From Agarivorans aestuarii (GTDB lineage: Bacteria; Pseudomonadota; Gammaproteobacteria; Enterobacterales; Celerinatantimonadaceae): a stretch of DNA of 64,000 bases. Of the stretch, positions 15,353 through 29,675 are shown in pieces; position 1 is the first letter of the stretch, and every line of letters begins with the position of its first letter. The notes under the pieces are model-generated. The model worked only from the letters and a program-made list of their open reading frames with translations. It searched no databases and was not told the origin of the DNA. Both the position numbers and the translations under genes were made by a program. The stretch is from contig NZ_AP023033.1 in NCBI RefSeq assembly GCF_019670125.1, positions 2,469,001 to 2,533,000 on the forward strand, read 5' to 3'.

Positions 15353-16822
15353 TTAGAGATCGTAAACTAAACCCAGCGAGCGATATATCGCATCGCTTAT
15401 TTTGCTCCCTGACGCCTTAATGCGCTGTTGTTTTCCTTGCAGCCAAATAGTCTCTCCTTTCTCGCTCAATCCAAGTTGCCACAAATGGGTATCGCGATCT
15501 TGGAACAAATAGTCTTCTAACTGTTCTGCAAAGTCTTCTCCGCATAGGTATAAACCAAACTCGAGATTAAGATGATCGGAGCGCGGATCAAAATTAGAGG
15601 ACCCAACATAACTGCACTGCTTATTCACAACCATCGCTTTTACGTGGTAATAATGCTTAGCGTGTCCTTTCTCTTTGTCTGGAGCAAACTCATAGATTTT
15701 AACGTCTTGTTGTAATAACTGTTTACGATAGGGTGAGTAATACGCTCCAACAAACGCTGAATCACTGCCCGTTTTACCAGCAGTAATTGCTGTTACCTCT
15801 GCACCAGATTGCTTGAATCTTTGTATATCACTTTCTCCAACGGCTTTAGGCAATAAATACGGTGTAGATATAACTAGCTGGTCAATCTGCTTATGCTTCT
15901 GCTGCATAGTTTTAGCCAAACGCTCTCGATGATAAGGTTGTTTGTCTTCAAGTTTATTAAGTGAATCAAACAAAGCGGTCGCTTCAACAGAAGTGTATTC
16001 GGGTTCAGCGATAGCTAATACACTGGCCGCAATCGCAGCTAGCTGCAATGGGTATTTGTTGGCAAGCTTGGTAAAACCCGCTAAAAAATTGTCGCGCTCT
16101 TCTGCCCTTGGTTTCCCCACTAAGATCTGAACATCAACCGCACTCTCACTCTGAAACAACTGATTAAAGTTTTTCTCAAAGGCCGCTAACACAGCTCCTT
16201 TTACCAACAAGTCCAAATCGAAAAAGTTTGCTTTTTTACTGTATTCAAAATAACTATCACCGATATTACGTCCACCAGTAATCATTAAATCACCATCCAC
16301 TAGTAGTAGCTTTTCATGTAAGCGATGATTACGTTTGTTTTTATGGATCTGAAAGTCAAACATGCGGCTAAACCAGCCCAGCTGACGCGCTTCAAAAGGA
16401 TTAAAAATGCGTATTTCAATGTTTTGGTGAGCGGCCAATGTTCTTAACCACATATCATTAAATTCAAGTAGGTCATCAAGAACTAACTTTACTTTTACAC
16501 CTCTGTCGGCGGCCATTCTCAGTTCTCTGTATAAGTAGGCACCACTTAGGTCATGGTCCCAAGTAAAATACTCCAGCAATACGTAAGACTTAGCGTTTCG
16601 AACAGCCGCTATGCGATTAGCTAACGCCTCTTTCCCATTTGGTATTAAATAGACTTGAGCAGGCACAGTCTCGGGCTGCCAGTTGCTAGTTAAGTCTTCA
16701 GCTATTGGCGGTGGTGCACTTGAGCACCCCGTTAACATACAAAACAATCCTAGTACCACCAACGACCTAATTTGCCAAAAGTTAGAAACTAGATTGGCTA
16801 CACATTGATTAATAGAGTGCAT
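15353..16822 (-). CDS. Second phospholipase D / cardiolipin-synthase-like lipoprotein
   Basis: A 489-residue PLD-superfamily protein with a lipoprotein signal (CMLTGCSS, Cys33). The first HKD motif is complete (H169-K171-D176 in LHEKLLLVDG). In the second, H393 and K395 are present but the acidic residue is replaced by Asn400 (HVKAMVVNKQ), while YVGSSNFDPRS is kept. It is diverged from the paralogue at 8546-10105. It lies 62 nt downstream of the outer-membrane-type gene on the same strand, with only a weak hairpin between (16863-16876), so it may be read from the promoter at 18644-18698. Confidence 0.83.
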   Translation of the reverse strand: MHSINQCVANLVSNFWQIRSLVVLGLFCMLTGCSSAPPPIAEDLTSNWQPETVPAQVYLIPNGKEALANRIAAVRNAKSYVLLEYFTWDHDLSGAYLYRELRMAADRGVKVKLVLDDLLEFNDMWLRTLAAHQNIEIRIFNPFEARQLGWFSRMFDFQIHKNKRNHRLHEKLLLVDGDLMITGGRNIGDSYFEYSKKANFFDLDLLVKGAVLAAFEKNFNQLFQSESAVDVQILVGKPRAEERDNFLAGFTKLANKYPLQLAAIAASVLAIAEPEYTSVEATALFDSLNKLEDKQPYHRERLAKTMQQKHKQIDQLVISTPYLLPKAVGESDIQRFKQSGAEVTAITAGKTGSDSAFVGAYYSPYRKQLLQQDVKIYEFAPDKEKGHAKHYYHVKAMVVNKQCSYVGSSNFDPRSDHLNLEFGLYLCGEDFAEQLEDYLFQDRDTHLWQLGLSEKGETIWLQGKQQRIKASGSKISDAIYRSLGLVYDL

Positions 16823-16884: not shown

Positions 16885-18513
16885 TTAGAAACGGTAACCA
16901 ACATTTAAGGTTGCTGCAGTGCGATCTTTACCTATGTTAACAATGCCAGTGATATTGAAGTTTTTGTCTAGCTCTTTATTAAAGCCAATGAGGCCAGCCC
17001 AACGTTGACTGCGAATACCTACGTTATAGTCCATTTCAATACCTTGGAAACGTACAGTACCTGTCATGTAGTCATCGTATCCTTGATATTCAGCACCAAT
17101 AAACACTTGAGCTCGTTGTTGCTGAAACTGGTAACCAAGCATCGGTTGCGCGGTAAAAATACTGCCACCCCAATCATCTGCACCATTCATTTTGGTTTTG
17201 GTCACAGTGCCAGTTAGCGAGGCGAATAAGTTTTTATATCCGATAGACAAGGTGGTGCCTGCACCAAGTAAGTCATATTGAAGGTGAATTGGAACATTAA
17301 AATCACCCGACGGAACGTAAATGTGTTCACCTAAACACTTGTCTCCAACCACCAAACCAATACACTGGTCGATGCCTTTAAAATGGGCTTGTACATCGGC
17401 ATCTACGTTTAGCTTTCCTACCAAGCCAAATACATTCCAAAATGGCAAGATGTAGGCGTCTCCACGAAGGGTAAAGCTCTCGGTATTTACTACCGCATGA
17501 GTTTTTTCTGGGTCAAAGAAAGTTTCTAAAAGTGCTGGGCTTAAACCAAAAACACTAAAGCTGGTAAAATCGAAGTTAGTTTCTTGGCCACGGTAAGCCA
17601 TAGAAAACCCATAAGGTTTTGGCAAGTCGATGCCCTTTCTACGTAACGTATCGCCAAAAAATGGAAGAACATTCTCTAATTTTACGTTTTCTTCACGCAC
17701 TCGAGGATCTGACATCTCTGAAAGTAACTGCTGATCCTTAATAATGGCTCCCGCAGCGTTGTCGTAAAACGCGACCGGTTTGATTTCCATGTCTAATTCG
17801 CAGGCATGGCCTTTACATATACCTGTTGCGTTTACCTCTTTGTGTTTAATAACGTACTCACCGGTATCTAACACTTCCAGTTTAAGTACCTGGCGATACT
17901 TGTTTACTTTTCCTAGATCGTGTTTGAACGGTTGATTATTGGTAATAACCATTTCTTTCACTAAACCGTTTCTTACCGTCATTTTCACTTGCATAAATCG
18001 GAAGAATGCTAAGTCTTGGGGCAAAGCAAACTTTGAATAGTTAAAACTAACCGTCGCACTACCATCGTTATTCTGGTCAACCTGCAAAGAGCTTTTGTCG
18101 TAGGTACTCGCGTATTGGCGCAACTTGTATTCTGTCATCGCCAGCTTCTCGATTTCTTTTAATAAGCCCTTTCTGTGTTTTAGGCTTTCTTCTTTGTAAC
18201 GAATGTTCAGATTCATGCGGCCTTTAAGGTCGGTACTATGGACCAAAAAGTACTCTGTTGTTTCGGTACCATGCTTTCCTGTAAAGCTTTTAGTTACGTG
18301 CTCAACAAAGTGCTCAGTTTGTCCTAGATCACTTAAGGCCAGGCCTGGAAGATGTTCAGGAATATTTAAATCTCGCAACTCGCTAAATTCATTTGCATTC
18401 TCTAAGTTAGAGGTGTCTTCGTGTTCCGCAAATGCGGTTGCAGAAAACATGAAACTAGATAGTAATGCTGCTTTTATCCAAGAGCTTGAAGTTGTGTTGT
18501 AAAGTGTTGTCAT
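16885..18513 (-). CDS. Unknown outer-membrane-type protein with C-terminal barrel
   Basis: A 542-residue protein not recognised by name. A signal peptide (MTTLYNTTSSSWIKAALLSS, cleavage probably after ATAFA) is followed by about 270 residues of mixed, soluble-looking sequence with the cysteine pair CKGHAC. The last 230 residues are alternating beta strands (GTTLSIGYKNLFASLTGT and so on) ending in GYRF, as outer membrane barrels do. It is controlled by the first of five like promoters in this window (18644-18698) and has a leader hairpin at 18607-18631. Role unknown; an outer membrane channel is an inference. Confidence 0.75.
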   Translation of the reverse strand: MTTLYNTTSSSWIKAALLSSFMFSATAFAEHEDTSNLENANEFSELRDLNIPEHLPGLALSDLGQTEHFVEHVTKSFTGKHGTETTEYFLVHSTDLKGRMNLNIRYKEESLKHRKGLLKEIEKLAMTEYKLRQYASTYDKSSLQVDQNNDGSATVSFNYSKFALPQDLAFFRFMQVKMTVRNGLVKEMVITNNQPFKHDLGKVNKYRQVLKLEVLDTGEYVIKHKEVNATGICKGHACELDMEIKPVAFYDNAAGAIIKDQQLLSEMSDPRVREENVKLENVLPFFGDTLRRKGIDLPKPYGFSMAYRGQETNFDFTSFSVFGLSPALLETFFDPEKTHAVVNTESFTLRGDAYILPFWNVFGLVGKLNVDADVQAHFKGIDQCIGLVVGDKCLGEHIYVPSGDFNVPIHLQYDLLGAGTTLSIGYKNLFASLTGTVTKTKMNGADDWGGSIFTAQPMLGYQFQQQRAQVFIGAEYQGYDDYMTGTVRFQGIEMDYNVGIRSQRWAGLIGFNKELDKNFNITGIVNIGKDRTAATLNVGYRF

Positions 18514-18606: not shown

Positions 18607-18631
18607 AGAGCGGGCAACGAATCCCCGCTCT
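18607..18631 (-). promoter_or_regulatory. Leader hairpin of the outer-membrane-type gene
   Basis: Stem AGAGCGGG / CCCGCTCT of 8 bp with a 9-nt loop, just downstream of the inferred transcription start (near 18637). No U-run follows, so it is more likely an mRNA-stabilising or attenuating leader element than a terminator. Confidence 0.4.
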
Positions 18632-18643
18632 GCTGATGGACGT

Positions 18644-18698
18644 AGAATAAAAGAGGTAAGATTAAGGCGTTAATCAGTGATGATGGATCGAATCCTCA
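18644..18698 (-). promoter_or_regulatory. Regulon promoter/operator A (outer-membrane-type gene)
   Basis: Minus-strand -10 TATTCT (18649-18644), box TTAATC (plus strand 18670-18675) and palindrome GGAT-CGA-ATCC (18685-18695) flanked by TGAT and TCA. The spacings 26 nt (-10 to box) and 15 nt (box to palindrome) are the same as at four other sites. The layout is that of a LysR-type promoter: a palindromic recognition site upstream and an activation half-site at the -35. Confidence 0.72.
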
Positions 18699-18998
18699 GT
18701 TTAATTATTAACCTTATCCAATACCTGGCTAACTGAAAAACTTGTAGGTTTTAACAAAAGAGATAACGCCGCATAGGTAACTAGATAAAGACAAGCTCAC
18801 CCAACATCCTTGTTCGGATTAGATACTCAAAAGAGCTTCGATGAAGGCTGCAAAGACAGCACCACAAAAACGCAACCTAATAAGATTAATGCTAGCTAAG
18901 GGCCCTTTGCAGAATAGTGGTAATGAATAGAAGGTTATCGCTATACAACGCGTTTACCAAGAGCAGAAAGTGCATGCCAATTAACAATTGTTTTCGGC

Positions 18999-20006
18999 TC
19001 ACTTGGCCTCAGCCAACATGTTTGTGCTAAAAAATGTATCTACAAAGTGAATAACAAAACGAACGATAATTAAAATTAGGCTCAGGAATAACAGCATCTG
19101 CAATGAGGCATTTATATCAAATACCGGCCTTAAGTGCTGAGCGTTCATCGTTAGCAATACTAGAAACTGGCCGCCAAGGATCCTCATGGGTACTTGATTA
19201 TCCTTTGGAAACAAACGCCAAACGGCAAATGTATTCACAAAGTAAAATGTCCCAAGCTGCCATGCATTGTCTAAAAGTGGTAACACAAACACATACTGAG
19301 TAAGCACAACAAAAGCCCAAACATAGACTAATCCTAATATCTTGTTGAGGTAGTGGTAAGGAAATTCGATAATACTAAGGCCCATAGTCGCAGCAATGAG
19401 TGGAAACATAAATCCACCGGGCATAGGCAGATATATCCATAACATCCAACTTACTAGGGTAACGACAACAAACTTAAGTGCACGTAAACGCCCCTCTGCT
19501 TGGCTAAGAAGGACTTGCTTCGGCAGTGTTTTAGGATCTTTCTCCTCTGGCCACAACAAGCTAAAAACTAGTGAATAAACAACTACTCCTAACAACGTTT
19601 CTTGCACTCTAAGCACTGCGATGTTGAAACTTAGCGATTGGCTTAAACCACTTGCTAACGAGACGATCACTGCCACTATAAACGCCATCTTATAAACATA
19701 AGCGTATTTCGAGCGGGCAGACATATAAGCGGCAGTGCCCCCCAATAAAAGCTCGCTTAACAAAAACAGTTCCCGCTGCTGGCCGAATAAAGCCAATAAT
19801 GCAAACCCCAGCACTACACCACTGGCTGTGCCAATCACTCGCTGTCTTGCCTTATGTAGGGCATGGCTATAACTCTCTGTTGTAGCCATTATTATTACAG
19901 CAATGGCTCCCCAGTATGGTTTCTCCCAACCAAAGCTCAATGCAAGAACAATGGTTAAACTTAGACTAACAGCTACCTTTATAGCTTTTATACTAGCTGC
20001 GTTCAT
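18999..20006 (-). CDS. FUSC-family inner membrane protein (AaeB-like, short form)
   Basis: A 335-residue membrane protein with about ten hydrophobic helices in two clusters, each opening like FUSC/AaeB proteins (AVSLSLTIVLALSFGWEKPYWGAIAVIIM and MLWIYLPMPGGFMFPLIAATMG, partial quotes). AaeB and related aromatic-acid or fusaric-acid exporters are about twice as long because of a large cytoplasmic region that is absent here. It is the last gene of a three-gene set with a DUF1656 protein and an HlyD-family adaptor, overlapping the latter by 14 nt. ATG at 20006 is preferred; GTG at 20012 is possible. Substrate unknown. Confidence 0.83.
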   Translation of the reverse strand: MNAASIKAIKVAVSLSLTIVLALSFGWEKPYWGAIAVIIMATTESYSHALHKARQRVIGTASGVVLGFALLALFGQQRELFLLSELLLGGTAAYMSARSKYAYVYKMAFIVAVIVSLASGLSQSLSFNIAVLRVQETLLGVVVYSLVFSLLWPEEKDPKTLPKQVLLSQAEGRLRALKFVVVTLVSWMLWIYLPMPGGFMFPLIAATMGLSIIEFPYHYLNKILGLVYVWAFVVLTQYVFVLPLLDNAWQLGTFYFVNTFAVWRLFPKDNQVPMRILGGQFLVLLTMNAQHLRPVFDINASLQMLLFLSLILIIVRFVIHFVDTFFSTNMLAEAK

Positions 20007-20874
20007 TAGCACTGACCTGTTTGTTGATCATAACGGAAGCAGTGGTTCCTACTCTTAGTTGTACATTAGCGGGTAACTCTGTCACGGTTATCTTAACTGG
20101 CAAACGCTGAGCAAGGCGTATCCATTCAAAATTTGGATTCACGCTTGGTAACATATGCGTACTAGTTGCGCCATCAGCCTGAGCAATACCATAACCTATG
20201 CTAGTTACTTGGCCTGTTAGCGGAGTATCGGGGTAACTCATTAAGGTTATAAGCGCGAGGTTACCCTTATGCATTTCTTCTATGTCGGTTTCTTTAAAAA
20301 AGCCTTCTATCCAAAAACTGGTTTCATCAATTAAAGCAACAACCGGTTGATTAGCGACTACATGTGCCCCCTCAGCTAAATTGAAGTTGGTAATGTAACC
20401 ATCCTTGCTGGCATACACTTTTGTAAAACTTAGGTTAAGCTCAGCCCCCTTTAGAGCAGCAGACGCAGCCTTAACATTTGCTTGAGCGGATAGAACATCA
20501 TTTTGCAAATTGTTTAATGTGATTACCGGTACCGAGCCTGGAGTGCGTTTTTCTAGGGCGCTCATTCTCTGTTGTTCGTTATTAGCCCTGGCTAAAACTG
20601 CTTTTGCTTGGGCTAAATTTGCATTTGCTTGCTGGCTTGCCGTTAGATAGACGCTATCATCAATTTCAAACAACAACTCACCGCTTCTTACTCGCTGGTT
20701 ATCCGAAATATAAATGGCAACAACCGGCCCAGTAACACGAGGAGTAATCTCTACGATATTGGCTCTCACCAACGCATCACGAGTCCAAGGGTTAGCAAGA
20801 TAATGCTGGTACTTTAATCCTGCCAACGTAGCGGCAACAACCACTAGCAATACAGTTAATATTTTAGTTTTCAT
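19993..20874 (-). CDS. HlyD-family periplasmic adaptor (AaeA/EmrA-like)
   Basis: A 293-residue membrane-fusion protein. One N-terminal anchor helix (about 5-23) is followed by the barrel/lipoyl segment (TPRVTGPVVAIYISDNQRV), a coiled-coil hairpin (about 80-145), and the returning lipoyl half (YASKDGYITNFNLAEGAHV). It would link the FUSC inner membrane protein to the outer membrane. AGGGAA lies 6 nt before the ATG. The HlyD and DUF1656 genes are 17 nt apart, so transcription from promoter B is expected. Confidence 0.88.
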   Translation of the reverse strand: MKTKILTVLLVVVAATLAGLKYQHYLANPWTRDALVRANIVEITPRVTGPVVAIYISDNQRVRSGELLFEIDDSVYLTASQQANANLAQAKAVLARANNEQQRMSALEKRTPGSVPVITLNNLQNDVLSAQANVKAASAALKGAELNLSFTKVYASKDGYITNFNLAEGAHVVANQPVVALIDETSFWIEGFFKETDIEEMHKGNLALITLMSYPDTPLTGQVTSIGYGIAQADGATSTHMLPSVNPNFEWIRLAQRLPVKITVTELPANVQLRVGTTASVMINKQVSANERS

Positions 20875-20891
20875 TTAAATTCCCTAGTGTT

Positions 20892-21110
20892 TTAGGCAGG
20901 AAAAACGTAGCGACTGAGAGCTACCGTGTAAATCACTAATAGTGACAACTCCACGAGCACTGGCGCATATAAGTACTTCCATCCTCCAATACGCCGAATT
21001 AAAGCCATAGTGAAGTTTGCAGCTAAATACGCGACACCAAACGCAATCAGTAGTGGTGGAAAGTAAATCTCTCCAAGCACTATTTCTTTAGGTAAATATT
21101 CTTGAAACAT
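20892..21110 (-). CDS. DUF1656 small membrane protein (AaeX-like)
   Basis: A 72-residue protein with two hydrophobic helices (about 15-36 and 47-68) and the family opening (PKEIVLGEIYFPPLLIAF). AaeX-type proteins always sit before the AaeA-like adaptor and AaeB-like pump; the same order is kept here. The role is not known. Its start codon lies only about 26 nt from the inferred transcription start of promoter B. Confidence 0.85.
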   Translation of the reverse strand: MFQEYLPKEIVLGEIYFPPLLIAFGVAYLAANFTMALIRRIGGWKYLYAPVLVELSLLVIYTVALSRYVFPA

Positions 21111-21142
21111 TGTTTAGTCTTCGTGTTGATGGACTTGCGGAG

Positions 21143-21197
21143 ATTTTAAAACTAGCCACTTTAAAGCGTTAATCGCGAATGAAGGATCACATCCTCA
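21143..21197 (-). promoter_or_regulatory. Regulon promoter/operator B (efflux operon)
   Basis: Minus-strand -10 TAAAAT (21148-21143), box TTAATC (plus strand 21169-21174) and GGAT-CAC-ATCC (21184-21194) flanked by TGAA and TCA. Spacings are identical to sites A, C, D and E. The palindrome lies 6 nt from the stop codon of the serine-hydrolase-like gene, so the efflux promoter is packed against the end of the gene before it. Confidence 0.72.
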
Positions 21198-21199
21198 AA

Positions 21200-22528
21200 C
21201 TAATAAAACTGATTTGCAGCCGCGCGTAAATACTCCATCATCTTTGAAGGGCAGCCCAAAGGTTCAAAAGCTTGGGACGAAAAATACACCGCAACATAAT
21301 CGCGCTTAGTATCGATATACATGCCTTGCCCAAAATAGCCTTGAAGGCAACGCGCCCCATCGCCATAAACCTTGTCAAAATTAAATGCATGCGACGCGCT
21401 GTTTCGCGCTAAGCCAGTTCGTTTTCTCATGTCATGCATAAGCTTGGCAGGCAATACCAGGGTATTGGTAATAGTTGGCCAACTAGGACAAAGTAACATT
21501 CCTACGCGAGCTGCATCTTCTATCGAAGACAATATAAAGTCATGACTTAAAGCGGTACCATCTGGCGCTAAGGTCACCACCATCGGCGCCTCTGCTTTAA
21601 TATTTCCCCAAATTCTGTTTTCAAAAATTTGTGTCCAAGGCAGCTGTTCAATTTCTTCGGCTATATAAGCTAAAACGGCTCGTGTTATAGGGCCAACCCC
21701 TTGTTCACTGGCAGCTGCCCCCCCTCTTTCTCTTTTAATTTGTTTTACAATGTCGAGCCAGTTTTCTTGATAACCGGTGTATGCATTTGGCCGGCCAAAT
21801 TGAGCCGCTAAGAAACGAGACATATAGGAATTTGGGTCAAACATTGTCTGTTGAGTAGGAGTAATGTTTAAACCACTCGTACCATTAATCGCTTGACGAA
21901 TGCTCACCCTGTCCCACTCGGTATTGCGAAACTCCGGAAGGTATACGCTTATAGATCTATCTATATCAATCTTCCCTTCATCAATAAACTGAGCAAACAC
22001 CATACTAATTGCTAAACTCGACAGCCCCATCCATACATGGTTTTGCTCGGCTTTCATTCCTGGATAGAGCTCGAATACCACCTGACCTGCCTGAACAATA
22101 ATTAAGCCTTGCACTCGGCTTTCCGGTAAAGAAACATAGTCGTTTAAACTACAAGTTTGGTTTTTACCTATTACCTCGCCAATTAATGGGTTAATCGACC
22201 GATCAAGTCGATGGTTAGATTCCGCTGGATTCACTAACGAGGACGGCAAAAAACGATTTAAATACGAGTTATAAATAAGTGCATCGTTGCCCCCCATAAC
22301 AAATTGATTAGGGCTAAAGTTTTTGTGCGCATGACGAATTTGCTCAAGTGAAAATCCCTGCAAGCTAGCAGATACAGGTAACAAAGGTTCTGCACCTTGA
22401 TTAAGTATTTGCGCATACTTCTGTTCAATGTACCGAGCATCCGGTTGTTCAGCGATACGGATCGACGCTGCCACTGCGCCAACGTTTGCCATTAAGGTGC
22501 CACGGGCAAGGCTCTGTTTAGTTTTCAT
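21200..22528 (-). CDS. Beta-lactamase-fold protein lacking the SxxK nucleophile (probable pseudoenzyme)
   Basis: A 442-residue protein of the class C beta-lactamase/serine hydrolase superfamily. The family pattern is plain around residues 140-215 (GLIIVQAGQVVFELYPGM, IDEGKIDIDRSISVYLPEF, then a ...TSGL segment). Where active members have W-x-S-V-S-K, this one has W166-M-G168-L-S-S171: Ser becomes Gly and Lys becomes Ser. The later Tyr-x-Asn motif is also not recognisable. The reading frame is intact and the gene has its own regulated promoter (C), so it is probably a functional non-catalytic protein. No signal peptide is obvious. Confidence 0.78.
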   Translation of the reverse strand: MKTKQSLARGTLMANVGAVAASIRIAEQPDARYIEQKYAQILNQGAEPLLPVSASLQGFSLEQIRHAHKNFSPNQFVMGGNDALIYNSYLNRFLPSSLVNPAESNHRLDRSINPLIGEVIGKNQTCSLNDYVSLPESRVQGLIIVQAGQVVFELYPGMKAEQNHVWMGLSSLAISMVFAQFIDEGKIDIDRSISVYLPEFRNTEWDRVSIRQAINGTSGLNITPTQQTMFDPNSYMSRFLAAQFGRPNAYTGYQENWLDIVKQIKRERGGAAASEQGVGPITRAVLAYIAEEIEQLPWTQIFENRIWGNIKAEAPMVVTLAPDGTALSHDFILSSIEDAARVGMLLCPSWPTITNTLVLPAKLMHDMRKRTGLARNSASHAFNFDKVYGDGARCLQGYFGQGMYIDTKRDYVAVYFSSQAFEPLGCPSKMMEYLRAAANQFY

Positions 22529-22570
22529 GGGATAGCTCTTTAAAACGATAAGGTGTTTATATTGCTACCT

Positions 22571-22622
22571 AGAATAGTGCTATGCTTTGCTCAGTGATAA
22601 TCGGACTTGAAGGATCAAATCC
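22571..22622 (-). promoter_or_regulatory. Regulon promoter/operator C (serine-hydrolase-like gene; LysR autoregulatory site)
   Basis: Minus-strand -10 TATTCT (22576-22571), box ATAATC (plus strand 22597-22602, one mismatch to TTAATC) and GGAT-CAA-ATCC (22612-22622). Spacings match the other sites. The palindrome ends 2 nt before the ATG of the divergent LysR gene, and its TTGAAGGAT segment also supplies that gene's ribosome binding site, so bound regulator should block its own expression. Confidence 0.75.
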
Positions 22623-22624
22623 AC

Positions 22625-23524
22625 ATGCATTTTAGTCTGGAACAGCTTGCAGCATTTGTAGCGGTTTATGAAAAGGGCTCATTTAGTGAAGCAGCGGTTA
22701 AACTAAACAAACACAGAACCACCATTGGCCAAGTGATAACCAATCTAGAAGACCAGCTGGCAGTAGAACTGTTTGAGCGAATTGGCAGAAGCGCTAAACC
22801 CACTAGTGAAGGGCAACTTTTATATAGCTACGCCAAGGTAACAATAGAGCAAGCTAAATCCTTTAACAAAATGGCACTTAGCCTGTCTTATGGGCAATTA
22901 GAGTGCCTAAATATTGCCTATACAAGTCTAATTCCCAGTGATGTGTTGGTTAGTATTCGCCAGCTTTTATTAGAAAAATACCCCGCTATGAAGGTTAACT
23001 TTCTAATTAAAACCAAGGAAGAGGTTAAAGCAGGGATCGAAGATGATTCAATACAACTGGGCTTTGTAAATGTAGATCAACGCACCCCTATCACGAGTTT
23101 CGATATTACTTTCCTTTGTTACCTTACTTTCGGTCTTTACACAGCTAAAAATAGCCCTCTGGCAGAGTTACCAAACGACCAAATATTTGGTGCTTTGAAA
23201 ACCAGTAAACAGCTGATACTAAAAGCTTATTTAGATGATGAGATCTCTCAAAAAATTTTATTGTCATCTAATTACGAAGTTATCGAAGATTTCTCGCTAT
23301 TGCTTAGCTTAGTTCAGCAAGGTGTAGGATGGTCATTATTGCCAAGGGTCACAATTGAAGACCTGGGCGATTTATTACAACTACAAAAGCTTAACTTGAA
23401 CGAAGTGAGAGATGATTTTCAGTTTCCCATTGCGCTTTGGGCACCGCGCTCTAAAGCGATAATGGAAATAAAGAAAGATGTAGAATCACTGGTTGTTGCG
23501 TACATTAACCAACGAAGAGCTTAA
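22625..23524 (+). CDS. LysR-family regulator, proposed controller of the five-site regulon
   Basis: A 299-residue LysR-type regulator. The N-terminal helix-turn-helix is clear (LEQLAAFVAVYEKGSFSEAA ... LNKHRTTIGQVITNLEDQL), followed by a substrate-binding domain. ATG at 22625 gives the usual family start; an in-frame TTG at 22607 would lie inside the operator. GAAGGA 10 nt upstream serves as ribosome binding site and is part of the operator palindrome. It is divergent from the serine-hydrolase-like gene, the classical LysR arrangement. Its effector is unknown; aspartate or an acid-stress signal is a guess from the targets. Confidence 0.87.
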   Translation: MHFSLEQLAAFVAVYEKGSFSEAAVKLNKHRTTIGQVITNLEDQLAVELFERIGRSAKPTSEGQLLYSYAKVTIEQAKSFNKMALSLSYGQLECLNIAYTSLIPSDVLVSIRQLLLEKYPAMKVNFLIKTKEEVKAGIEDDSIQLGFVNVDQRTPITSFDITFLCYLTFGLYTAKNSPLAELPNDQIFGALKTSKQLILKAYLDDEISQKILLSSNYEVIEDFSLLLSLVQQGVGWSLLPRVTIEDLGDLLQLQKLNLNEVRDDFQFPIALWAPRSKAIMEIKKDVESLVVAYINQRRA

Positions 23525-23603
23525 TAACGAGAACAAGTTATCAGGTGACAAGGGCGAAACAAGATGAACTTGTCTTCGCCTCATATTAACTAAGCGAGCA
23601 CTA

Positions 23604-24776
23604 TTAGGGTAACTCTGTGTGCCACTGTTGCTGGTTAATTGCTTTCGTAAAACCGTAATTATAAAGCGCCAACATATAGTCTTCATCAAACATTTTTTTA
23701 CCCTTTTTCTTCTCAGTAAAGTTTGCAGTAACGTAGGTGAATTTGGTGTTAAAGTTATGCTTTTCACTAAAATATAAGATTCGATATAGATCACCACGAT
23801 TTTGATTTAGGGTTAAGCTTTGAACGCTACGCCCAAGCAACTCTACACCTCTGTCCTTCAAATGTTGATAAGGTAGATCTAGTCTGCCATTACGCACCAC
23901 ATATATATTTGGTGAGCTATCAATGCCTAATGCCTGGGCTATGTTGTTGTAATCAAACCCGGCTGGGTCGGCAAACATTTGTGCACTAAGACCGCCATCT
24001 ACATGCATCTCTTCTAAGCTTTCGCCACTAGCGTTTACTTCAATAAACTGCGGAGGAAAAATGCCGGGTATAGATGAGCTAGCACTTAGCACTTGATGAA
24101 TCAGCTGATCCTTATTGGGATGATCACTTGCCGCAATTTGACCTAAGTTCCAAACAACTTGTCTACCAGAATCAAAATGCGTTGTGCCTATAAACAAGCG
24201 CTTACCACTGTTATGTGTAGCAGCAATTTTAGCGATCATTTGCTCATCAAACGTTGCAGCAATAAACTCGTTTAAGCCTTGCCCATTACTAACCCCATCT
24301 TTAAATAAGGCATTTAAATAATTGCGCTTCGACAAAATGCGCTTATCGCTAATACCTAACATGATGTTTTTCATAGTGACAATGTCGTCGCCACCTACAA
24401 AGACAAATGGCGCAATAAGAGCGCCAGCACTTACACCTGTGACCACAGCAAAATCAGGTAAGTTGCCGCTTTCATACATCCCATTAATAATGCCAGCACC
24501 ATAGGCACCGTTTGCTCCCCCGCCAGATAAGGCAAGAATATTTAGCGAACTGGATGAGGTACGTAATACTGTAGTATGAGTGTCTTTGTTATATAGGAAA
24601 TTTGGTGCCTCATTGCCCCAAAAGCGCAACGGTTCACTCAATGATTGCTCGGCTATTAACGCTACTTGTTGATAGTTCTTTTCGGTTACGCGTTTGTCTA
24701 GCTCATGATGCGAACTACAAGCACTTAATACTAACGTAGCCAAAACAATCTGCACTAAGGTTTTTGTATTAAACAT
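23604..24776 (-). CDS. Patatin-like phospholipase lipoprotein
   Basis: A 390-residue patatin-family protein with a lipoprotein signal (LVLSACSS, Cys20). The oxyanion glycines lie in LSGGGANGAYGAG, the nucleophile is S116 in GVSAG, and the catalytic Asp is D260 in VDGG, so the Ser-Asp dyad is complete. It would act on lipids from the periplasmic side of the envelope. ATG at 24776 is chosen because GAGG lies 8 nt upstream; an earlier in-frame start would put a non-signal segment ahead of the lipobox. It follows pdxY by 10 nt, so the two share a transcript. Confidence 0.85.
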   Translation of the reverse strand: MFNTKTLVQIVLATLVLSACSSHHELDKRVTEKNYQQVALIAEQSLSEPLRFWGNEAPNFLYNKDTHTTVLRTSSSSLNILALSGGGANGAYGAGIINGMYESGNLPDFAVVTGVSAGALIAPFVFVGGDDIVTMKNIMLGISDKRILSKRNYLNALFKDGVSNGQGLNEFIAATFDEQMIAKIAATHNSGKRLFIGTTHFDSGRQVVWNLGQIAASDHPNKDQLIHQVLSASSSIPGIFPPQFIEVNASGESLEEMHVDGGLSAQMFADPAGFDYNNIAQALGIDSSPNIYVVRNGRLDLPYQHLKDRGVELLGRSVQSLTLNQNRGDLYRILYFSEKHNFNTKFTYVTANFTEKKKGKKMFDEDYMLALYNYGFTKAINQQQWHTELP

Positions 24777-24786
24777 CGTCTCTACC

Positions 24787-25644
24787 TCAAGCCACTTTAG
24801 AAGCAGCAAAGCTGTGGCGAGGCTCGCTTAGCTGATCTTGTGCAAAAACAGTTTGCAGCTCCCACTCACCACATTGCCGAGTAGCCTCTAATACACCAAA
24901 ACTCGCGTTGTTAGCATGCTCTAAAGCCATAATGGGTGGCCAACCTTTCAATAAACCTCCGGTAAATAGCGCCGAAATCAGATCGCCCACGCCCACAGGG
25001 GCTTTATCAAACTCTAAATTAGGGCGTTTAACCAAATAGCAGCCACTTGAATCAGCCATCATCATGCAAAACTGCTGCTTTGATAAACTATGTAGATGTT
25101 TAACCAACACCACCTTTGGCCCTTTAGTTAAAGCCATCTGGCACGCCGCGATAGCTTCATCTAAGTTAGTTATTTCCATCCCTACAAAGCGGCTTAATTC
25201 AAATTGATTAGGCACTATCACATCTGCTTTTGGCATAAGATATTCAACCAAATACTCGCTAATACCTTCTGCTAAAATACAGCCTTTATCAGGGTCACCC
25301 ATAACAGGATCGCAAACGTATATCGCCCTTGGATTAACTTGTTTAACCATGTCTACGGCGGCAATTAATGAGGTTGCCTGAGCTGCATCGCCCAAATAAC
25401 CAGATACAATAGCTTGGCATTGCTGTAACTGCCCTATTGCATCAATTCCCTTCACTAAATCAGAGATGGCATCTGCCGGAAAGCATTGGCCAGTCCACCC
25501 TTGAGCATATTGCGTATGATTAGAAAACTGCACCGTATGAACGGGCCAAACTTCAAAACCCATACGTTGCAGTGGAAACACCGCCGAGCTGTTTCCAGCA
25601 TGGCCATAAACAACATGTGATTGAACAGAAATAATGCCTTTCAT
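24787..25644 (-). CDS. pdxY: Pyridoxal kinase PdxY
   Basis: Ribokinase-family enzyme that phosphorylates pyridoxal to pyridoxal 5'-phosphate. Its 285 residues match E. coli PdxY closely in motif order: [50 protein letters not shown] and the ATP/anion-hole motif [10 protein letters not shown]. It lies 62 nt downstream of aspD, whose product needs PLP, and upstream of the patatin gene. A palindrome in the gap may lower but need not stop read-through. Confidence 0.92.
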
Positions 25645-25675
25645 GATGCGACTTCTCTACTTGATTAAATAAGTA

Positions 25676-25695
25676 GAGGCGCGATATCGCGCCTC
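25676..25695. terminator. Perfect 20-nt palindrome between aspD and pdxY
   Basis: Two 10-nt arms, GAGGCGCGAT and ATCGCGCCTC, form an 8-bp GC-rich hairpin with an ATAT loop 11 nt after the aspD stop. On the minus strand the following bases are TACTTATTTAATC, so the U-run is poor; partial termination or an RNA stabilising element separating aspD from pdxY levels is likely. Confidence 0.55.
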
Positions 25696-25706
25696 GTTAG
25701 CAGGGC

Positions 25707-27293
25707 TTATTGCGCTTTAAATTCAGCGTAATGCTCGTCTAGTACTTTGCGAGTTTCACGACCAATTAACTCGTACTCATGATGAGTTAGGTTAGCCAAT
25801 GAAACACGTACAGAAGCGTGCACAGTGTCGAAGCCTTTACCTGGAAGTAAAATTACTCCGGTAGACTGGGCTAAACGGAAGAGGAAGTATTGGCCTTTAC
25901 CACTTTCTTTAAACCAGCGAACAAATTCGTCGCCATAAAGCTTGCCACCAATAGTGTCTAGCTCTAGCAATGTGTAGTAATCAACACGGTCTTTATCTTC
26001 TTCAACAGCTACACCCATTGCGCCGTATAAAGTTTGGTAACGCTCGCGGATAATGCGCTTACAAGCCGCTTTGTAGTTGTCTTCCATATCCATTAAACAA
26101 GTTAATGAAAATAGCGCCATCTGTACTTGTTGAGGCAAGGCTAAACCTGCAGTGTGGTTAAGAGCTACTGCACGGCTGTCAGCTACGATACGGTCAATAA
26201 ATTTAATATCACGTGGAGTGGGCGTTAGCGTTTTGTAACGATCATCTAGAGCGAGTTGGTGCTGCTCTGGTAGTGCGCGCATCGCATCGTCAAATACATT
26301 TGATTCGTGAATACCGATAGTGCCTAAGCGCCAGCCAGTTGCACCAAAGTATTTAGAGAATGAGTATACACACAAGGTGTTGTAAGGCAGTGTTGCGAAT
26401 AACGATACAAAGTCATCAGCAAATGTGCCGTATACGTCATCTGTAATAATAAACAGATCTTTACGTTGGCTATTAACAAAGTTAGATAGCAAGGTTAGCG
26501 TTTCATCAGACATTTTAACTGATGCAGGGTTAGCTGGGTTAACTACACAAAGCAATTTAATGTCGGTATCGGCTAACTTGTTAATCTCAGACTCAGGAAG
26601 CTGCCAGGTAGTTTCATCTAGGCGTAGCTCAACAATTTCAAGTTCGTATTCAGCAAGCTCTGGAATCTCTAAGTAAGGGGTGAAAATAGGTGTGATAAGC
26701 GCAACTTTGTCACCTTTTTTCAATAAACCATTATTAAACATTGTGGCGAAGGTGTAAGTCATTGATGCAGTACCACCTTCTGTGGCAAACAAATCAAAGT
26801 TGGTGGTCATTGGCATCGCGCCGTACATTTCTTCGCCAATGTATTGCTTAACTACTTTTTCAATGTTTCTTAGCATGCGAGAAGGTACTGGGTAGTTACA
26901 ACCCAAGAACGCCAATACTAGCTCGTTAAGAAAATCGTGTTTTTCAATGCCTAAGCGATCTTTAGCGTAGCTTAGTGCTTTTTGAATAAACTGAACGCCC
27001 TCTTTATCACCATATTGTTTTGCAAAGGTATCAAAACGCTCAACAATGCCTTCTCCATTTGGAATGCCACCAAAACCCCCATCTAGGTAAGCGTAGTTAC
27101 GCTCTGCTTCTTCTACAGAGAAGTCACCTAAACGCAAAAATGCTTTACGTGGAAGAGTTGCTAAAAAGTTTGGGTTACCACGGCCTGCATCTAGCAATGC
27201 ACGATCTGGAACGGTGTTAGCAAGATCGATCAATTTGTCTTTTAATTCAAATGGGCTTAAGTCTGCAAATTGAGAGAAATCGATGTTTAACAT
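25707..27293 (-). CDS. aspD: Aspartate 4-decarboxylase / aspartate aminotransferase AspD
   Basis: PLP-dependent enzyme converting L-aspartate to L-alanine and CO2, consuming one cytoplasmic proton. It has 528 residues, the usual AspD size (longer than plain aminotransferases). The PLP-binding lysine is K314 in YSFSKYFGATGWRLG; the cofactor-site segments VNPANPAS and TDDVYGTF are present. With AspT it forms the aspartate-alanine cycle known from Tetragenococcus, which builds proton-motive force and resists acid. Expressed from promoter D; AGAAGG lies 11 nt before the ATG. Confidence 0.94.
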   Translation of the reverse strand: MLNIDFSQFADLSPFELKDKLIDLANTVPDRALLDAGRGNPNFLATLPRKAFLRLGDFSVEEAERNYAYLDGGFGGIPNGEGIVERFDTFAKQYGDKEGVQFIQKALSYAKDRLGIEKHDFLNELVLAFLGCNYPVPSRMLRNIEKVVKQYIGEEMYGAMPMTTNFDLFATEGGTASMTYTFATMFNNGLLKKGDKVALITPIFTPYLEIPELAEYELEIVELRLDETTWQLPESEINKLADTDIKLLCVVNPANPASVKMSDETLTLLSNFVNSQRKDLFIITDDVYGTFADDFVSLFATLPYNTLCVYSFSKYFGATGWRLGTIGIHESNVFDDAMRALPEQHQLALDDRYKTLTPTPRDIKFIDRIVADSRAVALNHTAGLALPQQVQMALFSLTCLMDMEDNYKAACKRIIRERYQTLYGAMGVAVEEDKDRVDYYTLLELDTIGGKLYGDEFVRWFKESGKGQYFLFRLAQSTGVILLPGKGFDTVHASVRVSLANLTHHEYELIGRETRKVLDEHYAEFKAQ

Positions 27294-27360
27294 GTTTTAT
27301 ATACCTTCTGATTAAGTGTTTACTTTTCGTCCGCTAGGCAACTGCCTTGGCGATGGAGGT

Positions 27361-27416
27361 ATATTAAGTAACAGAGAAAAATCGAGTTAATCGCCTATGA
27401 AGGATCAGGTCCATCA
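27361..27416 (-). promoter_or_regulatory. Regulon promoter/operator D (aspD)
   Basis: Minus-strand -10 TAATAT (27366-27361), box TTAATC (plus strand 27387-27392) and GGAT-CAG-GTCC (27402-27412, one mismatch in the right arm) flanked by TGAA and ATCA. Spacings 26 and 15 nt are the same as at the other four sites. Confidence 0.75.
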
Positions 27417-27678
27417 ACACTACAAAACTAGGTTTATTCTAGTCTGTAAGCTCTAAATAAGCTTAAACATTAGATAGCTAAAACATTGATTAAATTAGCA
27501 TTTAAAACAAAAGGGGAAAGACGAACGCCTTCTGGATAAGTGCTTGGCTATTAGGCGCTAAACCGCACCTGGTTAGTCGCTGGTAACTTTATATTAGAAT
27601 CACACAAGCATTGTTTTCAGCCCAAAAAACTAACCGCCAATGCAAGCACTGCATAATGATTAGCGGCTAAAACGCAAA

Positions 27679-27708
27679 AGCAGCAAGCTCCGTGAGAAAC
27701 TTGCTGCT
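27679..27708 (-). terminator. Terminator of aspT
   Basis: Stem AGCAGCAAG / CTTGCTGCT of 9 bp with a 12-nt loop; on the minus strand it is followed by TTTTGCGTTTTA. It lies 80 nt past the aspT stop and separates aspT from aspD, which therefore needs its own promoter. Confidence 0.75.
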
Positions 27709-27787
27709 GGGTTATTTATTAAGGGCAGTCTACTTGCCGCATCAAAGAGGCAAACATGAGTGAGCCCCTTTAATTAGCGTTAGCTTA

Positions 27788-29494
27788 TTAGCCAACGTTA
27801 GTAGTAATTATCCCGATGATGATTGGGCCCCACAATGTAAGCAATACGTTTGCAATTGCGTAGGTAACCGTGAACGAGAATACTGGAGTCGCGTTGCCTG
27901 CTTTTTCTAACAAGGCGGCAAATGCTGGGTTAGCACTTCTACCACCGGCTATAGCACCTAGCGCCTCAATAGGGTTTCTTACTCGCAATACATAATAAGA
28001 GAAGAAGAAAGCCACAATTTGCGGAATTAAGGTAACACCTACACCTAGCATAAGTAAGGTTAAGCCGTGCTCACGGATGGCGTCAATTGCTTGAGGACCA
28101 GCCTGTAGGCCAACAATGCCCACGAACACTGCCAAACCAAAGTCGCGAATAAAGTTTGATGCACCCATTGGGAAGGAAGCAACTTTAGGGTTTTTACTGC
28201 GTAACCAGCCAACCATTAGACCCGAAATCAAACAGCCTGCGCCAGAACCAATAGTTACGGGAATCCCAGCAATTTTGAAGTTGATTAAACCAATAAGTAA
28301 ACCAACAACCATACCAAGACCAAACAATACAAAGTCTGTCACATAAGCTGAACCTAAACGTTGGCCAATATTATTTGCAACACGGTTTAAGTCTGCCGCT
28401 TTACCGGTAATTTGCACAATATCGTGTTTTTTAATGACTAGATCAGCATTGACCGCTAAGCTAGTTCCGCCACGATTTACATCAGTGATGTATACGCCAC
28501 GAGTTAACGACTTTTGCGCTAGTTGTTTTATTTGTCCAAGAGTTTTACCGATTAGCTTAGAGTTAGTAGCAATAAGTTGGCGATTTTCTTCAACTAATTC
28601 TACCGAACTAGGAATATCAATTTCTTCACCTAACAAGCTTGCCTGTTGCTTAACTGCAGAGCGTCGACCTGTCACTACTACTACATCATTCTCTCTAAAA
28701 GTGACCTCATTTGAAGCTAGCGCCTCACCTTCGCGTTGCACTAACTCGATTGCTGTATCAATCAAGCTATCGTTAGCTTGGGCGATGGTTTTATGTAATA
28801 GCGCGCTATTACCATCGATACGATAAGCACGTGAGTCTAAGGCTGTAATTGCGTTAAATTCACCATCAGATAACTCGGTTTTACCATCGTTTTGTTTCTC
28901 GGCAAGTTCAATAGCTTCTTTACGAATGTCCCACTTCATCAGTGTTGGGATAATCCATGTCACCATCAAAATTGGACCAAGCGAACCAAAGATATAAGTT
29001 ACCGCATAACCTACAGCCACGTTAGTTTGCATTAAGGCTTTGGCTTCTTCAGTAATACCACCTAATTTGCCAATGGCATCGCCAGCGGTACCAATAATGG
29101 CAGATTGGGTTAAACCACCAGCTGCTAAACCAGCTGCAGTTCCGCGGTCAAGATCAAACATCCAAGCAGCACCTAACACCACAAATAAACCAACGCTTGT
29201 CATAACAACGGCTGACAAAATAACGTTAACGGTTTTGCGGTTTAACGCGCCAAAGAACTGAGGACCACCTTGAAAACCAACAGCATAAATAAACAATGCA
29301 AAGAAAATGCTTTTAACACCAGGGTCAATATCAACACCAAGTTGACCAACGACTACACCCATTAATAAGGTACCGGCGACGCCGCCTAGTACAAACCGAC
29401 CAATGGTGATCTTACCTATCAAATAGCCAAGTGCCAAAGTGATGAACAAAGCAATATACGGAGAGCTTTGGATTAATTGTTGGGCGATGCTCAT
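27788..29494 (-). CDS. aspT: Aspartate:alanine antiporter AspT
   Basis: Inner-membrane exchanger of the AAEx family that imports aspartate and exports alanine, electrogenic in the known cases. Its 568 residues form two membrane halves separated by a large cytoplasmic region (about 190-375) with two TrkA-C-like (RCK_C) segments. Membrane signatures include GFQGGPQFFGALN and the repeated AGGLTQSAIIGTAGDA / AGGRSANPAFAAL. GGGAGGTG lies 5 nt before the ATG. The start codon overlaps the stop of a 29-codon small gene (ATGA). Promoter E lies 126-181 nt upstream. Confidence 0.94.
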   Translation of the reverse strand: MSIAQQLIQSSPYIALFITLALGYLIGKITIGRFVLGGVAGTLLMGVVVGQLGVDIDPGVKSIFFALFIYAVGFQGGPQFFGALNRKTVNVILSAVVMTSVGLFVVLGAAWMFDLDRGTAAGLAAGGLTQSAIIGTAGDAIGKLGGITEEAKALMQTNVAVGYAVTYIFGSLGPILMVTWIIPTLMKWDIRKEAIELAEKQNDGKTELSDGEFNAITALDSRAYRIDGNSALLHKTIAQANDSLIDTAIELVQREGEALASNEVTFRENDVVVVTGRRSAVKQQASLLGEEIDIPSSVELVEENRQLIATNSKLIGKTLGQIKQLAQKSLTRGVYITDVNRGGTSLAVNADLVIKKHDIVQITGKAADLNRVANNIGQRLGSAYVTDFVLFGLGMVVGLLIGLINFKIAGIPVTIGSGAGCLISGLMVGWLRSKNPKVASFPMGASNFIRDFGLAVFVGIVGLQAGPQAIDAIREHGLTLLMLGVGVTLIPQIVAFFFSYYVLRVRNPIEALGAIAGGRSANPAFAALLEKAGNATPVFSFTVTYAIANVLLTLWGPIIIGIITTNVG

Positions 29495-29580
29495 AGCGCA
29501 CCTCCCGTGTTTTTACTTAAACAAGCAAGTGTTGCAGATACGCAAACTTGCTGTCCAAATTGAATTAATAATTGAAACAT
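29491..29580 (-). CDS. 29-residue small protein or leader peptide overlapping aspT
   Basis: An ATG with a strong ribosome binding site (AGAGGTAGGT directly upstream) opens a 29-codon frame, MFQLLIQFGQQ ... KNTGGAL, whose TGA overlaps the aspT ATG as ATGA. It is the first reading frame on the transcript expected from promoter E (start near 29613). The arrangement means either a small hydrophobic protein made with AspT or a leader peptide that couples translation to aspT. The last codons contain the aspT ribosome binding site GGGAGG. No named family is recognised. Confidence 0.62.
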   Translation of the reverse strand: MFQLLIQFGQQVCVSATLACLSKNTGGAL

Positions 29581-29619
29581 ACCTACCTCTAGTTGATATC
29601 GCCCTGTTGCGATGCAGGC

Positions 29620-29675
29620 ATATTAATCAAGAGGATTTGACAGCGTTACTCACCATTGATGGATCGAATCCATCA
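29620..29675 (-). promoter_or_regulatory. Regulon promoter/operator E (aspT)
   Basis: Minus-strand -10 TAATAT (29625-29620), box TTACTC (plus strand 29646-29651, one mismatch) and a perfect palindrome TGATGGAT-CGA-ATCCATCA (29657-29675), the best of the five. Spacings 26 and 15 nt again. Confidence 0.78.

What the first reader, a model, noticed from the sequence alone, without database searches (positions are those of the whole stretch)
18644..29675. Five promoters with identical geometry define a LysR regulon around aspartate decarboxylation
Reading both strands, five intergenic sites share one layout. On the plus strand: a box (TTAATC at A, B and D; ATAATC at C; TTACTC at E), then GGAT-N3-ATCC exactly 15 nt later (18685, 21184, 22612, 27402, 29661), with a minus-strand -10 hexamer exactly 26 nt before the box (TATTCT, TAAAAT, TATTCT, TAATAT, TAATAT). 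I predicted the -10 at one site and then found it at the other four. All fire leftwards: outer-membrane-type gene, AaeX/HlyD/FUSC operon, serine-hydrolase-like gene, aspD, aspT. A LysR gene lies divergent at the middle site. Known: LysR proteins use a palindromic recognition site plus an activation site at the -35. Inference: one regulator ties acid/pmf metabolism (AspD-AspT) to efflux, phospholipase and outer membrane change.
Basis: partly seen in the sequence, partly recalled or inferred. Interest (0 to 1): 0.88.

Follow-up and report, generated by a model that had tools for sequence, protein, structure and literature searches.

The report
A LysR-run acid-defence regulon
One regulator protein of marine bacteria appears to switch on, through a rigidly spaced promoter code, a set of genes that consume acid, pump out chemicals and remodel the cell envelope, and the same code recurs in Vibrio, Shewanella and other relatives.

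Summary
The five sites have the stated geometry to the base; one flaw: site D reads GGAT-N3-GTCC. Genome-wide the dyad+box pattern (up to 3 mismatches) occurs six times, reversed control none: the five sites plus one 2.1 Mb away before an Asp/Glu racemase. A matrix trained only on the window's genus finds 143 sites in 80 loci of other genera (Vibrio, Shewanella, Neiella and others); 137 lie outside ORFs of 100 aa or more; shuffled loci give 0-1. With the -10 left out of the search, TANNNT sits at the predicted position in 119 of 150 non-redundant sites, next best offset 11. Among 295 genomes of the order the motif is in 18 of 22 with this LysR family and 2 of 273 without. AspT-AspD loci have the site in 8 of 8 fetched from LysR+ genomes and 0 of 14 of a diverged AspT-AspD type. 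In a sister species GadB with an AspT-family transporter replaces AspD-AspT under the same code. Best reading: an LTTR activator of a modular decarboxylation, efflux and envelope regulon, probably answering acid or weak acids. Binding, activation and signal are inferred.

The parts
18644..18699 (-). Site A: dyad GGATTCGATCC + GATTAA box + -10 TATTCT; fires at the outer-membrane-barrel gene and PLD-like gene
   Evidence: conserved in G001, G004; lower-scoring forms before the orthologue in G002 (35.1) and G006 (23.8)
21143..21198 (-). Site B: GGATGTGATCC + GATTAA + -10 TAAAAT; fires at the DUF1656/HlyD/FUSC efflux operon
   Evidence: present before the same operon in G001-G004
22571..22626 (-). 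Site C: GGATTTGATCC + GATTAT + -10 TATTCT; fires at the serine-hydrolase gene; dyad lies on the Shine-Dalgarno/start of the divergent LysR gene (likely autoregulatory, inference)
   Evidence: G001, G003, G004; lower score (26.1) in G002
27361..27416 (-). Site D: GGACCTGATCC (one base off the strict dyad) + GATTAA + -10 TAATAT; fires at aspD-pdxY-patatin
   Evidence: a site stands before each of the four aspD copies found in the genus genomes searched
29620..29675 (-). Site E: perfect 19-bp palindrome TGATGGATTCGATCCATCA + GAGTAA + -10 TAATAT; fires at aspT
   Evidence: before aspT in G002 and G004 and in other families
22625..23524 (+). LysR-type regulator, proposed to bind sites A-E
   Evidence: Pfam HTH_1 and LysR_substrate; family co-occurs with the motif
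16885..18513 (-). Outer-membrane protein: C-terminal beta-barrel, N-terminal periplasmic domain (from the model); no Pfam/NCBIfam family
   Evidence: model mean pLDDT 75, pTM 0.46, 14 strand elements in residues 301-541; only generic barrel matches in the rows seen
15353..16822 (-). PLD/cardiolipin-synthase-like protein, downstream in the same direction
   Evidence: Pfam PLDc_2
20892..21110 (-). DUF1656 (AaeX-like) small membrane protein
19993..20874 (-). HlyD/AaeA-like periplasmic adaptor
   Evidence: below the AaeA equivalog cut-off
18999..20012 (-). FUSC-family membrane protein, 337 aa against 648 positions of the AaeB model
21200..22528 (-). Beta-lactamase-fold serine hydrolase
   Evidence: Pfam PF00144
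25707..27293 (-). AspD, aspartate 4-decarboxylase
   Evidence: TIGR03801 719.7 bits, cut-off 435.1
24787..25644 (-). PdxY pyridoxal kinase (PLP is the cofactor of AspD; recalled)
   Evidence: NF004398 367.2 bits, cut-off 292
23604..24773 (-). Patatin-like phospholipase, lipoprotein by its N-terminus
   Evidence: Pfam PF01734; lipobox read by eye
27788..29494 (-). AspT, aspartate:alanine antiporter
   Evidence: TIGR03802 664.9 bits, cut-off 546.95

Best explanation
The LysR protein at 22625-23524 is the activator of a regulon. A tetramer holds the 19-bp dyad (consensus TGNWGGRT-N3-ATCCWWCA, centred about -53 from the expected start) and reaches the half-site-like GATTA box over the -35 region (about -38 to -34); when its effector is present it recruits RNA polymerase to the -10 that lies 20 nt beyond GATTAA. 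Genes so controlled remove protons by amino-acid decarboxylation (AspD+AspT, with PdxY for PLP and an Asp/Glu racemase for substrate; GadB in a sister species), export organic acids or other toxic compounds (DUF1656-HlyD-FUSC) and change envelope lipids and outer-membrane proteins. The most likely signal is cytoplasmic acidification or a membrane-permeant weak acid. Shown from sequence: sites, geometry, conservation, co-occurrence, target list. Inferred: binding by this LysR (about 0.92), activation rather than repression (about 0.8), acid/weak-acid signal (about 0.6).
For: Six genome hits vs 0 control. All 24 genus sites keep TANNNT at one place (counted by eye; some are near-duplicates; found without the -10). 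143 sites in 80 loci of other genera vs 0-1 in each of five dinucleotide shuffles and 0-4 with ten column-permuted matrices; 137 of 143 outside ORFs of 100 aa or more although 80.6% of the bases are inside. With the -10 left out, TANNNT at the predicted offset in 119 of 150 sites, other offsets at most 11. Motif in 18 of 22 LysR+ (E 1e-70) and 2 of 273 other genomes, Fisher 5e-23; inside five families 18 of 22 vs 0 of 63, product of p 6e-13. AspT-family genes near this LysR 21 of 21; AspT-AspD loci 8 of 8 from LysR+ genomes vs 0 of 14 of the diverged type. Sites persist where the target is on another contig or about 1 Mb from LysR (G222, G079, G192; G212). GadB under the motif in G001 and Aliivibrio L072. 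Racemase gene in 3 of 8 genomes searched, the AspD+ ones, a site before a copy in each.
Against: No binding or expression data. 13 of 74 non-outgroup LysR loci have no site above threshold, and 4 of 22 LysR+ genomes lack the strict motif (G003 and G007 have it under the pattern, G119 and G286 were not looked at further). Sites are before only 7 of 19 patatin, 6 of 22 PdxY, 7 of 23 Omp85-like, 1 of 4 serine-hydrolase and 1 of 15 amidohydrolase genes (some are inner operon genes). Several species hold two or three LysR paralogues, so which paralogue binds which site is open there, and site-bearing LysR rows are not one clade (8 changes on the tree, shuffled 15.6). The centred T-N11-A 'LysR box' is met in 1 of 5 window sites. 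Many other targets (esterases, peptidases, amidohydrolases, Omp85) are not obviously acid genes.
Confidence: 0.7

Rival explanations
1. Same regulon and regulator, but the signal is a lipophilic or aromatic organic acid (or another membrane toxicant) rather than pH: the efflux operon is the core and the decarboxylases are secondary pmf/pH repair.
For: The DUF1656-HlyD-FUSC operon is the commonest site-bearing target (30 AaeX + 6 HlyD of 143 sites; 34 of 42 HlyD operons); esterases, amidohydrolases and envelope genes are frequent targets; weak relatives of the LysR include AceR and BenM.
Against: Decarboxylases of two and perhaps three families, and two sodium/proton exchangers with low-scoring sites, under the same motif fit pH stress more directly.
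Confidence: 0.25
2. Aspartate/glutamate catabolic or energy regulon: the effector is the amino acid and AspD-AspT serves pmf generation.
For: AspT is electrogenic (start of the abstract of PMC9508256); racemase co-inherited with AspD and site-bearing.
Against: Genomes without AspD keep the LysR and sites at efflux, serine-hydrolase or outer-membrane genes (G003, G006, G007).
Confidence: 0.1
3. The dyad is bound by another protein (another LTTR or unrelated factor) and LysR is a bystander.
For: The first look listed 63 candidate relatives in this genome (39 scored); a 43% paralogue exists at 4.67 Mb.
Against: Co-occurrence within families; G001, G003 and G004 have one detected family member and the sites; the genus member without a detected LysR (G005) has only two 3-mismatch hits, both inside ORFs of my mechanical gene map; own paralogue lies in a five-row clade of which four rows have no sites.
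Confidence: 0.06
4. The sites are repeats spread by duplication or mobile elements, not regulatory.
For: Five similar elements clustered in 11 kb.
Against: Only the functional columns are conserved, spacers diverge, and the -10 is fixed in 119 of 150 non-redundant sites.
Confidence: 0.01

Closest known systems
LysR-type transcriptional regulator (LTTR) activation scheme (recalled: recognition site plus activation site at the -35)
   Same: HTH_1 + LysR_substrate protein, divergent neighbour gene, dyad upstream of a second site over the -35
   Different: Dyad centre near -53 and spacing to the -10 kept to the base in 119 of 150 sites; at the centred T-N11-A positions A is commoner first and T commoner last; several unlinked operons
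Escherichia coli acid fitness island and GadE/GadX regulon (recalled)
   Same: Decarboxylase/antiporter, efflux pump and envelope genes under one acid control
   Different: Regulator is an LTTR, not LuxR/AraC type; decarboxylase is AspD (or GadB); efflux is FUSC type
AspD-AspT of Tetragenococcus (PMC9508256, start of the abstract only)
   Same: Window proteins pass TIGR03801 and TIGR03802 cut-offs
   Different: Here part of a wider regulon with PdxY, racemase and site-bearing promoters
AaeXAB/AaeR of E. coli (recalled; NCBIfam models)
   Same: DUF1656-HlyD-FUSC order near a LysR gene
   Different: AaeA, AaeB and AaeR equivalog cut-offs not reached; FUSC half-length
AceR (NF052373; Acinetobacter efflux regulator, recalled)
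   Same: Best NCBIfam match of the LysR (100.6 bits); its DNA-binding domain is among the PDB relatives
   Different: Far under the equivalog cut-off of 500

Membership tests
LysR-type regulator (LTTR) | N-terminal LysR HTH and C-terminal LysR substrate domain | tested here: met
   PF00126 61 bits (cut-off 26.6), PF03466 37.7 bits (cut-off 28)
LysR-type regulator (LTTR) | Dyad target with a second site reaching the -35 of target promoters | tested here: met
   Dyad + GATTA + -10 at fixed spacing; that LysR occupies it is not shown
LysR-type regulator (LTTR) | T-N11-A motif centred on the dyad | tested here: not met
   Only site E of the five has T and A at the centred positions (sequences); in the 150 sites, columns counted separately, the first is A in 97 and T in 45, the last T in 81 and A in 50. 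Other registers were not tested
LysR-type regulator (LTTR) | Binds its sites and responds to an effector | not testable with these tools
   needs gel shift, DAP-seq, expression
AspD-AspT system | AspD over TIGR03801 cut-off | tested here: met
   719.7 vs 435.1 bits
AspD-AspT system | AspT over TIGR03802 cut-off | tested here: met
   664.9 vs 546.95 bits
AaeXAB efflux | AaeA and AaeB equivalog cut-offs | tested here: not met
   AaeA 173.8 vs 400; AaeB 29 vs 870: AaeXAB-like only
AaeR or AceR regulator | Equivalog cut-off | tested here: not met
   AaeR 52.4 vs 425; AceR 100.6 vs 500
Glutamate decarboxylase acid system (sister species G001) | GadB over TIGR01788 cut-off | tested here: met
   547.7 vs 380.4
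Glutamate decarboxylase acid system (sister species G001) | Partner is a known glutamate/GABA antiporter | tested here: inconclusive
   Partner is AspT-family (TIGR03802 362.9 vs cut-off 546.95); substrate unknown
E. coli acid fitness island | Same regulators (GadE/GadX/GadW) | not tested
   analogy in content only, recalled

The most novel reading that the evidence does not exclude
An undescribed LTTR is a master acid/weak-acid stress regulator of marine Gammaproteobacteria (Vibrio, Shewanella, Ferrimonas, Neiella, the window's genus), running an island whose decarboxylase-antiporter cassette is swapped between species (AspD, GadB, perhaps an ornithine/lysine/arginine decarboxylase) while the promoter code is kept.
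Probability: 0.55. Interest if true: 0.75.

Novelty: new member of a known kind. Interest (0 to 1): 0.62.

Why it matters
It names a regulator and a readable promoter code for a set of genes that carry generic annotations in many marine genomes. It gives a direct, cheap test of how marine bacteria outside the enterics organise acid, weak-acid or membrane stress, and a natural experiment in which the same regulator and promoter keep their place while the metabolic cassette behind them is exchanged.

Tried and rejected
One search used a pattern with one N too many and found none of the five sites; replaced. Strict GGATNNNATCC (18 places) or the dyad alone (33 places vs 19 control) is not specific. 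The place at 14172 was rejected: inside an Omp85-type gene, no box or -10. The own paralogue LysR (4.67 Mb, beside an AcrB-type pump) was considered as regulator: it lies in a five-row clade, four rows without sites. The AspD loci alone were an unfair control (flanks of 1.5 kb), so longer stretches were fetched. The outer-membrane protein model (pTM 0.46) gave only generic barrels (TM by query length at most 0.24 in the 50 rows seen): no function from it. Ten paper searches (listings seen) and passages of two regulon papers showed no description of this regulon; the library is open-access only.
Full report
WHAT IS THERE. Read on the minus strand, the five sites are close to TGAxGGAT-N3-ATCCxTCA, five bases, GATTAAC, then a -10 twenty bases after GATTAA (sequences). 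Site E is a perfect 19-bp palindrome. Site D departs by one base (GGATCAGGTCC). The genes are: an outer-membrane barrel protein with no named family and a PLD-like protein; a DUF1656-HlyD-FUSC efflux operon; a beta-lactamase-fold serine hydrolase; aspD-pdxY-patatin; aspT; and, divergent at the middle site, a LysR gene. The middle dyad overlaps the Shine-Dalgarno of the LysR gene (read by eye), as expected for autoregulation (inference).

IS IT MORE THAN CHANCE. The dyad alone is not specific: 18 strict places, or 33 with up to 3 mismatches against 19 for the reversed control. Dyad plus box, up to 3 mismatches, has six places in the 4.69 Mb genome and its reversed control none. Five are sites A-E; the sixth (G000:C1:392210) stands before an Asp/Glu racemase gene (TIGR00035 158 bits for the long frame in L045, 163 bits for the G004 orthologue in L056; cut-off 93), has a -10 TAAGCT at the same place, and is kept in G004.

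SISTER SPECIES. Of six other genomes of the genus, five have the LysR and one (G005) has none at E 1e-30 (of its 63 first-look candidates 39 were scored). Sites are kept with their genes in G001-G004 and partly in G006, where only the outer-membrane gene has a clear one. G005 has two 3-mismatch hits, both inside ORFs of my mechanical map. AspD occurs in 3 of 13 genomes searched, each of which has the LysR, in four copies, each with a site before aspD and before aspT. In G001, whose LysR is 100% identical, aspD-aspT is replaced by glutamate decarboxylase (548 bits, cut-off 380), an AspT-family transporter and a 216-aa protein; GadB has a site of lower score (3 mismatches), and PdxY-patatin, left without aspD, has one of its own. 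In G003 an orphan site beside glk is followed by an ISAs1 transposase where relatives have aspT. The racemase gene exists in 3 of 8 genomes searched, which are the AspD+ ones, and each has a site before a copy (scores 30.5, 30.5, 22.4), although in the window's genome it is 2.1 Mb away; G002 also holds a shorter second copy without a site.

OTHER FAMILIES. A profile of the LysR found 80 loci in named genomes (103 candidates confirmed, the best 80 kept), mostly Vibrio and Shewanella, also Photobacterium, Aliivibrio, Ferrimonas, Paraferrimonas, Neiella, Psychromonas and Alginatibacterium, plus distant ones in Zobellella, Oceanisphaera and Thaumasiovibrio. The same genes recur around it. A 57-column matrix made only from 24 sites of the window's genus scores at least 10 upstream of AspT-family genes in 21 of 21 (some only 26-33% identical to AspT), AaeX 29 of 40, the outer-membrane gene 18 of 22, HlyD 23 of 46, patatin 7 of 19, Omp85-like 7 of 23, PdxY 6 of 22, AspD 2 of 14, serine hydrolase 1 of 4, amidohydrolase 1 of 15, GadB 1 of 1, ThrE 0 of 2, FUSC 0 of 40, PLD-like 0 of 10; 35 of 927 other genes also score, and 0 of 1287 block-shuffled regions. 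FUSC, AspD, PdxY and others are often inner genes of an operon. Counting operons, 34 of 42 HlyD operons have a site. In all there are 143 sites, near-copies of close species included; 6 lie inside ORFs of 100 aa or more though 80.6% of the bases do; five dinucleotide shuffles of all loci give 0, 1, 0, 1, 1 and ten column-permuted matrices 0-4. 61 of 80 loci have a site; the six loci of the most distant LysR proteins (E 8e-30 or worse) have none, and 13 of the other 74 have none.

THE -10 TEST. Searching with the first 32 columns only, so that the -10 plays no part, gives 174 hits, 150 after removing near-copies; TANNNT stands at the predicted offset in 119, at any other of the 33 offsets tried in at most 11. 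This is the strongest single evidence that these are promoters with one geometry. Column preferences suggest a CA start 7 nt past the -10, which would put the dyad centre near -53 and GATTA near -38 to -34 (inference).

WHICH PROTEIN. The strict motif was written, so its presence in LysR+ genomes is partly built in; the test is its absence elsewhere. In 295 genomes of the order it is in 20, and the LysR family at E 1e-70 or better is in 22, 18 in common; 2 of 273 without the LysR have it (G174, G285; Fisher 5e-23; the reversed control hit 1 genome). At the search's own cut of 1e-40 27 genomes have a LysR; the five I left out (32-36% identity, E about 1e-44 to 1e-47) have no motif, which would make it 18 of 27 vs 2 of 268. 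Related genomes are not independent, so I split by family: f6 6/6 vs 0/15, f11 2/2 vs 0/21, f20 2/2 vs 0/5, f21 3/5 vs 0/17, f1 5/7 vs 0/5. Of 38 motif places in LysR+ genomes 29 lie within 20 kb of a LysR and 9 do not. Sites also stand before AspT where AspT-AspD is on another contig than LysR (G222, G079, G192) or about 1 Mb away (G212). Control from the target side: AspD is in 32 of 295 genomes, 13 with and 19 without the LysR. Long stretches were fetched for 22 AspT-AspD loci. 12 of 12 from genomes without the LysR, plus G267 (also without it) and a second, 47%-type AspD copy in G276, have no site of 8 or more, while 8 of 8 fetched from LysR+ genomes (82-85% type) have one directly before AspT. 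G276 holds both types and only the one in the LysR island has the site. The two types differ in ancestry, so this control speaks for the lineage as well as for the regulator. The window's LysR sits in an 8-row clade whose rows all have sites (support 100/97); the own paralogue, beside an AcrB-type pump, sits in a five-row clade with sites at one row; over the whole tree sites and no-sites need 8 changes (shuffled mean 15.6), so paralogues differ.

HOW IT WORKS. The anatomy fits an LTTR activator: dyad as main site, half-site-like GATTA box over a poor -35, fixed -10. The targets across families include proton-consuming decarboxylases (AspD, GadB; an ornithine/lysine/arginine decarboxylase in Vibrio L102 with a weak site of 10.7), AspT-family transporters, two sodium/proton exchangers (L122, L131; scores 13.5 and 12.7), the FUSC efflux operon, and envelope proteins: patatin, Omp85 proteins, the barrel protein, and a protein of about 690 aa in a 12-locus BLAST cluster, of which the one member scanned is a carboxylesterase. 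That resembles the content of an acid-fitness island (recalled), and I commit to acid or weak-acid stress as the signal at about 0.6. PdxY and racemase fit as cofactor and substrate supply for AspD (inference).

WHAT IS NOT SHOWN. Binding, direction of control and effector. The NCBIfam names AaeA, AaeB, AaeR and AceR are not reached, so the efflux operon is AaeXAB-like only and the LysR is not AaeR. The outer-membrane protein has a barrel fold in a moderate model and nothing more specific.

ORGANISM.

LITERATURE. Ten searches listed no paper that by title or abstract start describes this regulon. Of PMC3223726 and PMC5343134 I saw passages only: they do not show it. Of PMC9508256 I saw the start of the abstract. 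Most subscription papers are not in the library.

Noticed in passing
L047:13062-17156 (G001) with site 17276: Glutamate decarboxylase + AspT-family transporter + 216-aa protein replace aspD-aspT in a sister species under the same promoter code.
   Followed up: yes
L045:9207 (G000:C1:392210-392236): Sixth site of the genome, before an Asp/Glu racemase found among eight genomes only in the three AspD+ ones.
   Followed up: yes
L052:10808-12992 (G003): Orphan promoter site followed by an ISAs1 transposase where aspT stands in relatives: a natural loss of the cassette.
   Followed up: partly
window 18607-18631: Perfect 8-bp inverted repeat AGAGCGGG/CCCGCTCT in the leader just past the site A -10 (read by eye).
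   Followed up: no
window 14172-14182: A further GGAT-N3-ATCC inside an Omp85-type gene, without box or -10; taken as chance.
   Followed up: yes
L046:8331-15259 (G000:C1:4.67 Mb): A 43% paralogue of the LysR beside an AcrB-type pump; no site of 12 or more next to it.
   Followed up: partly
L072:12487-14577 and 11 further loci: A protein of about 690 aa (carboxylesterase in the one member scanned) recurs under the motif in Vibrio, Aliivibrio and Shewanella; role unknown.
   Followed up: partly
L184:8858, 9456, 9736 (G192): Three sites of the motif in a row, with no same-strand gene of more than 150 aa listed directly after them; could be small genes or relics.
   Followed up: no
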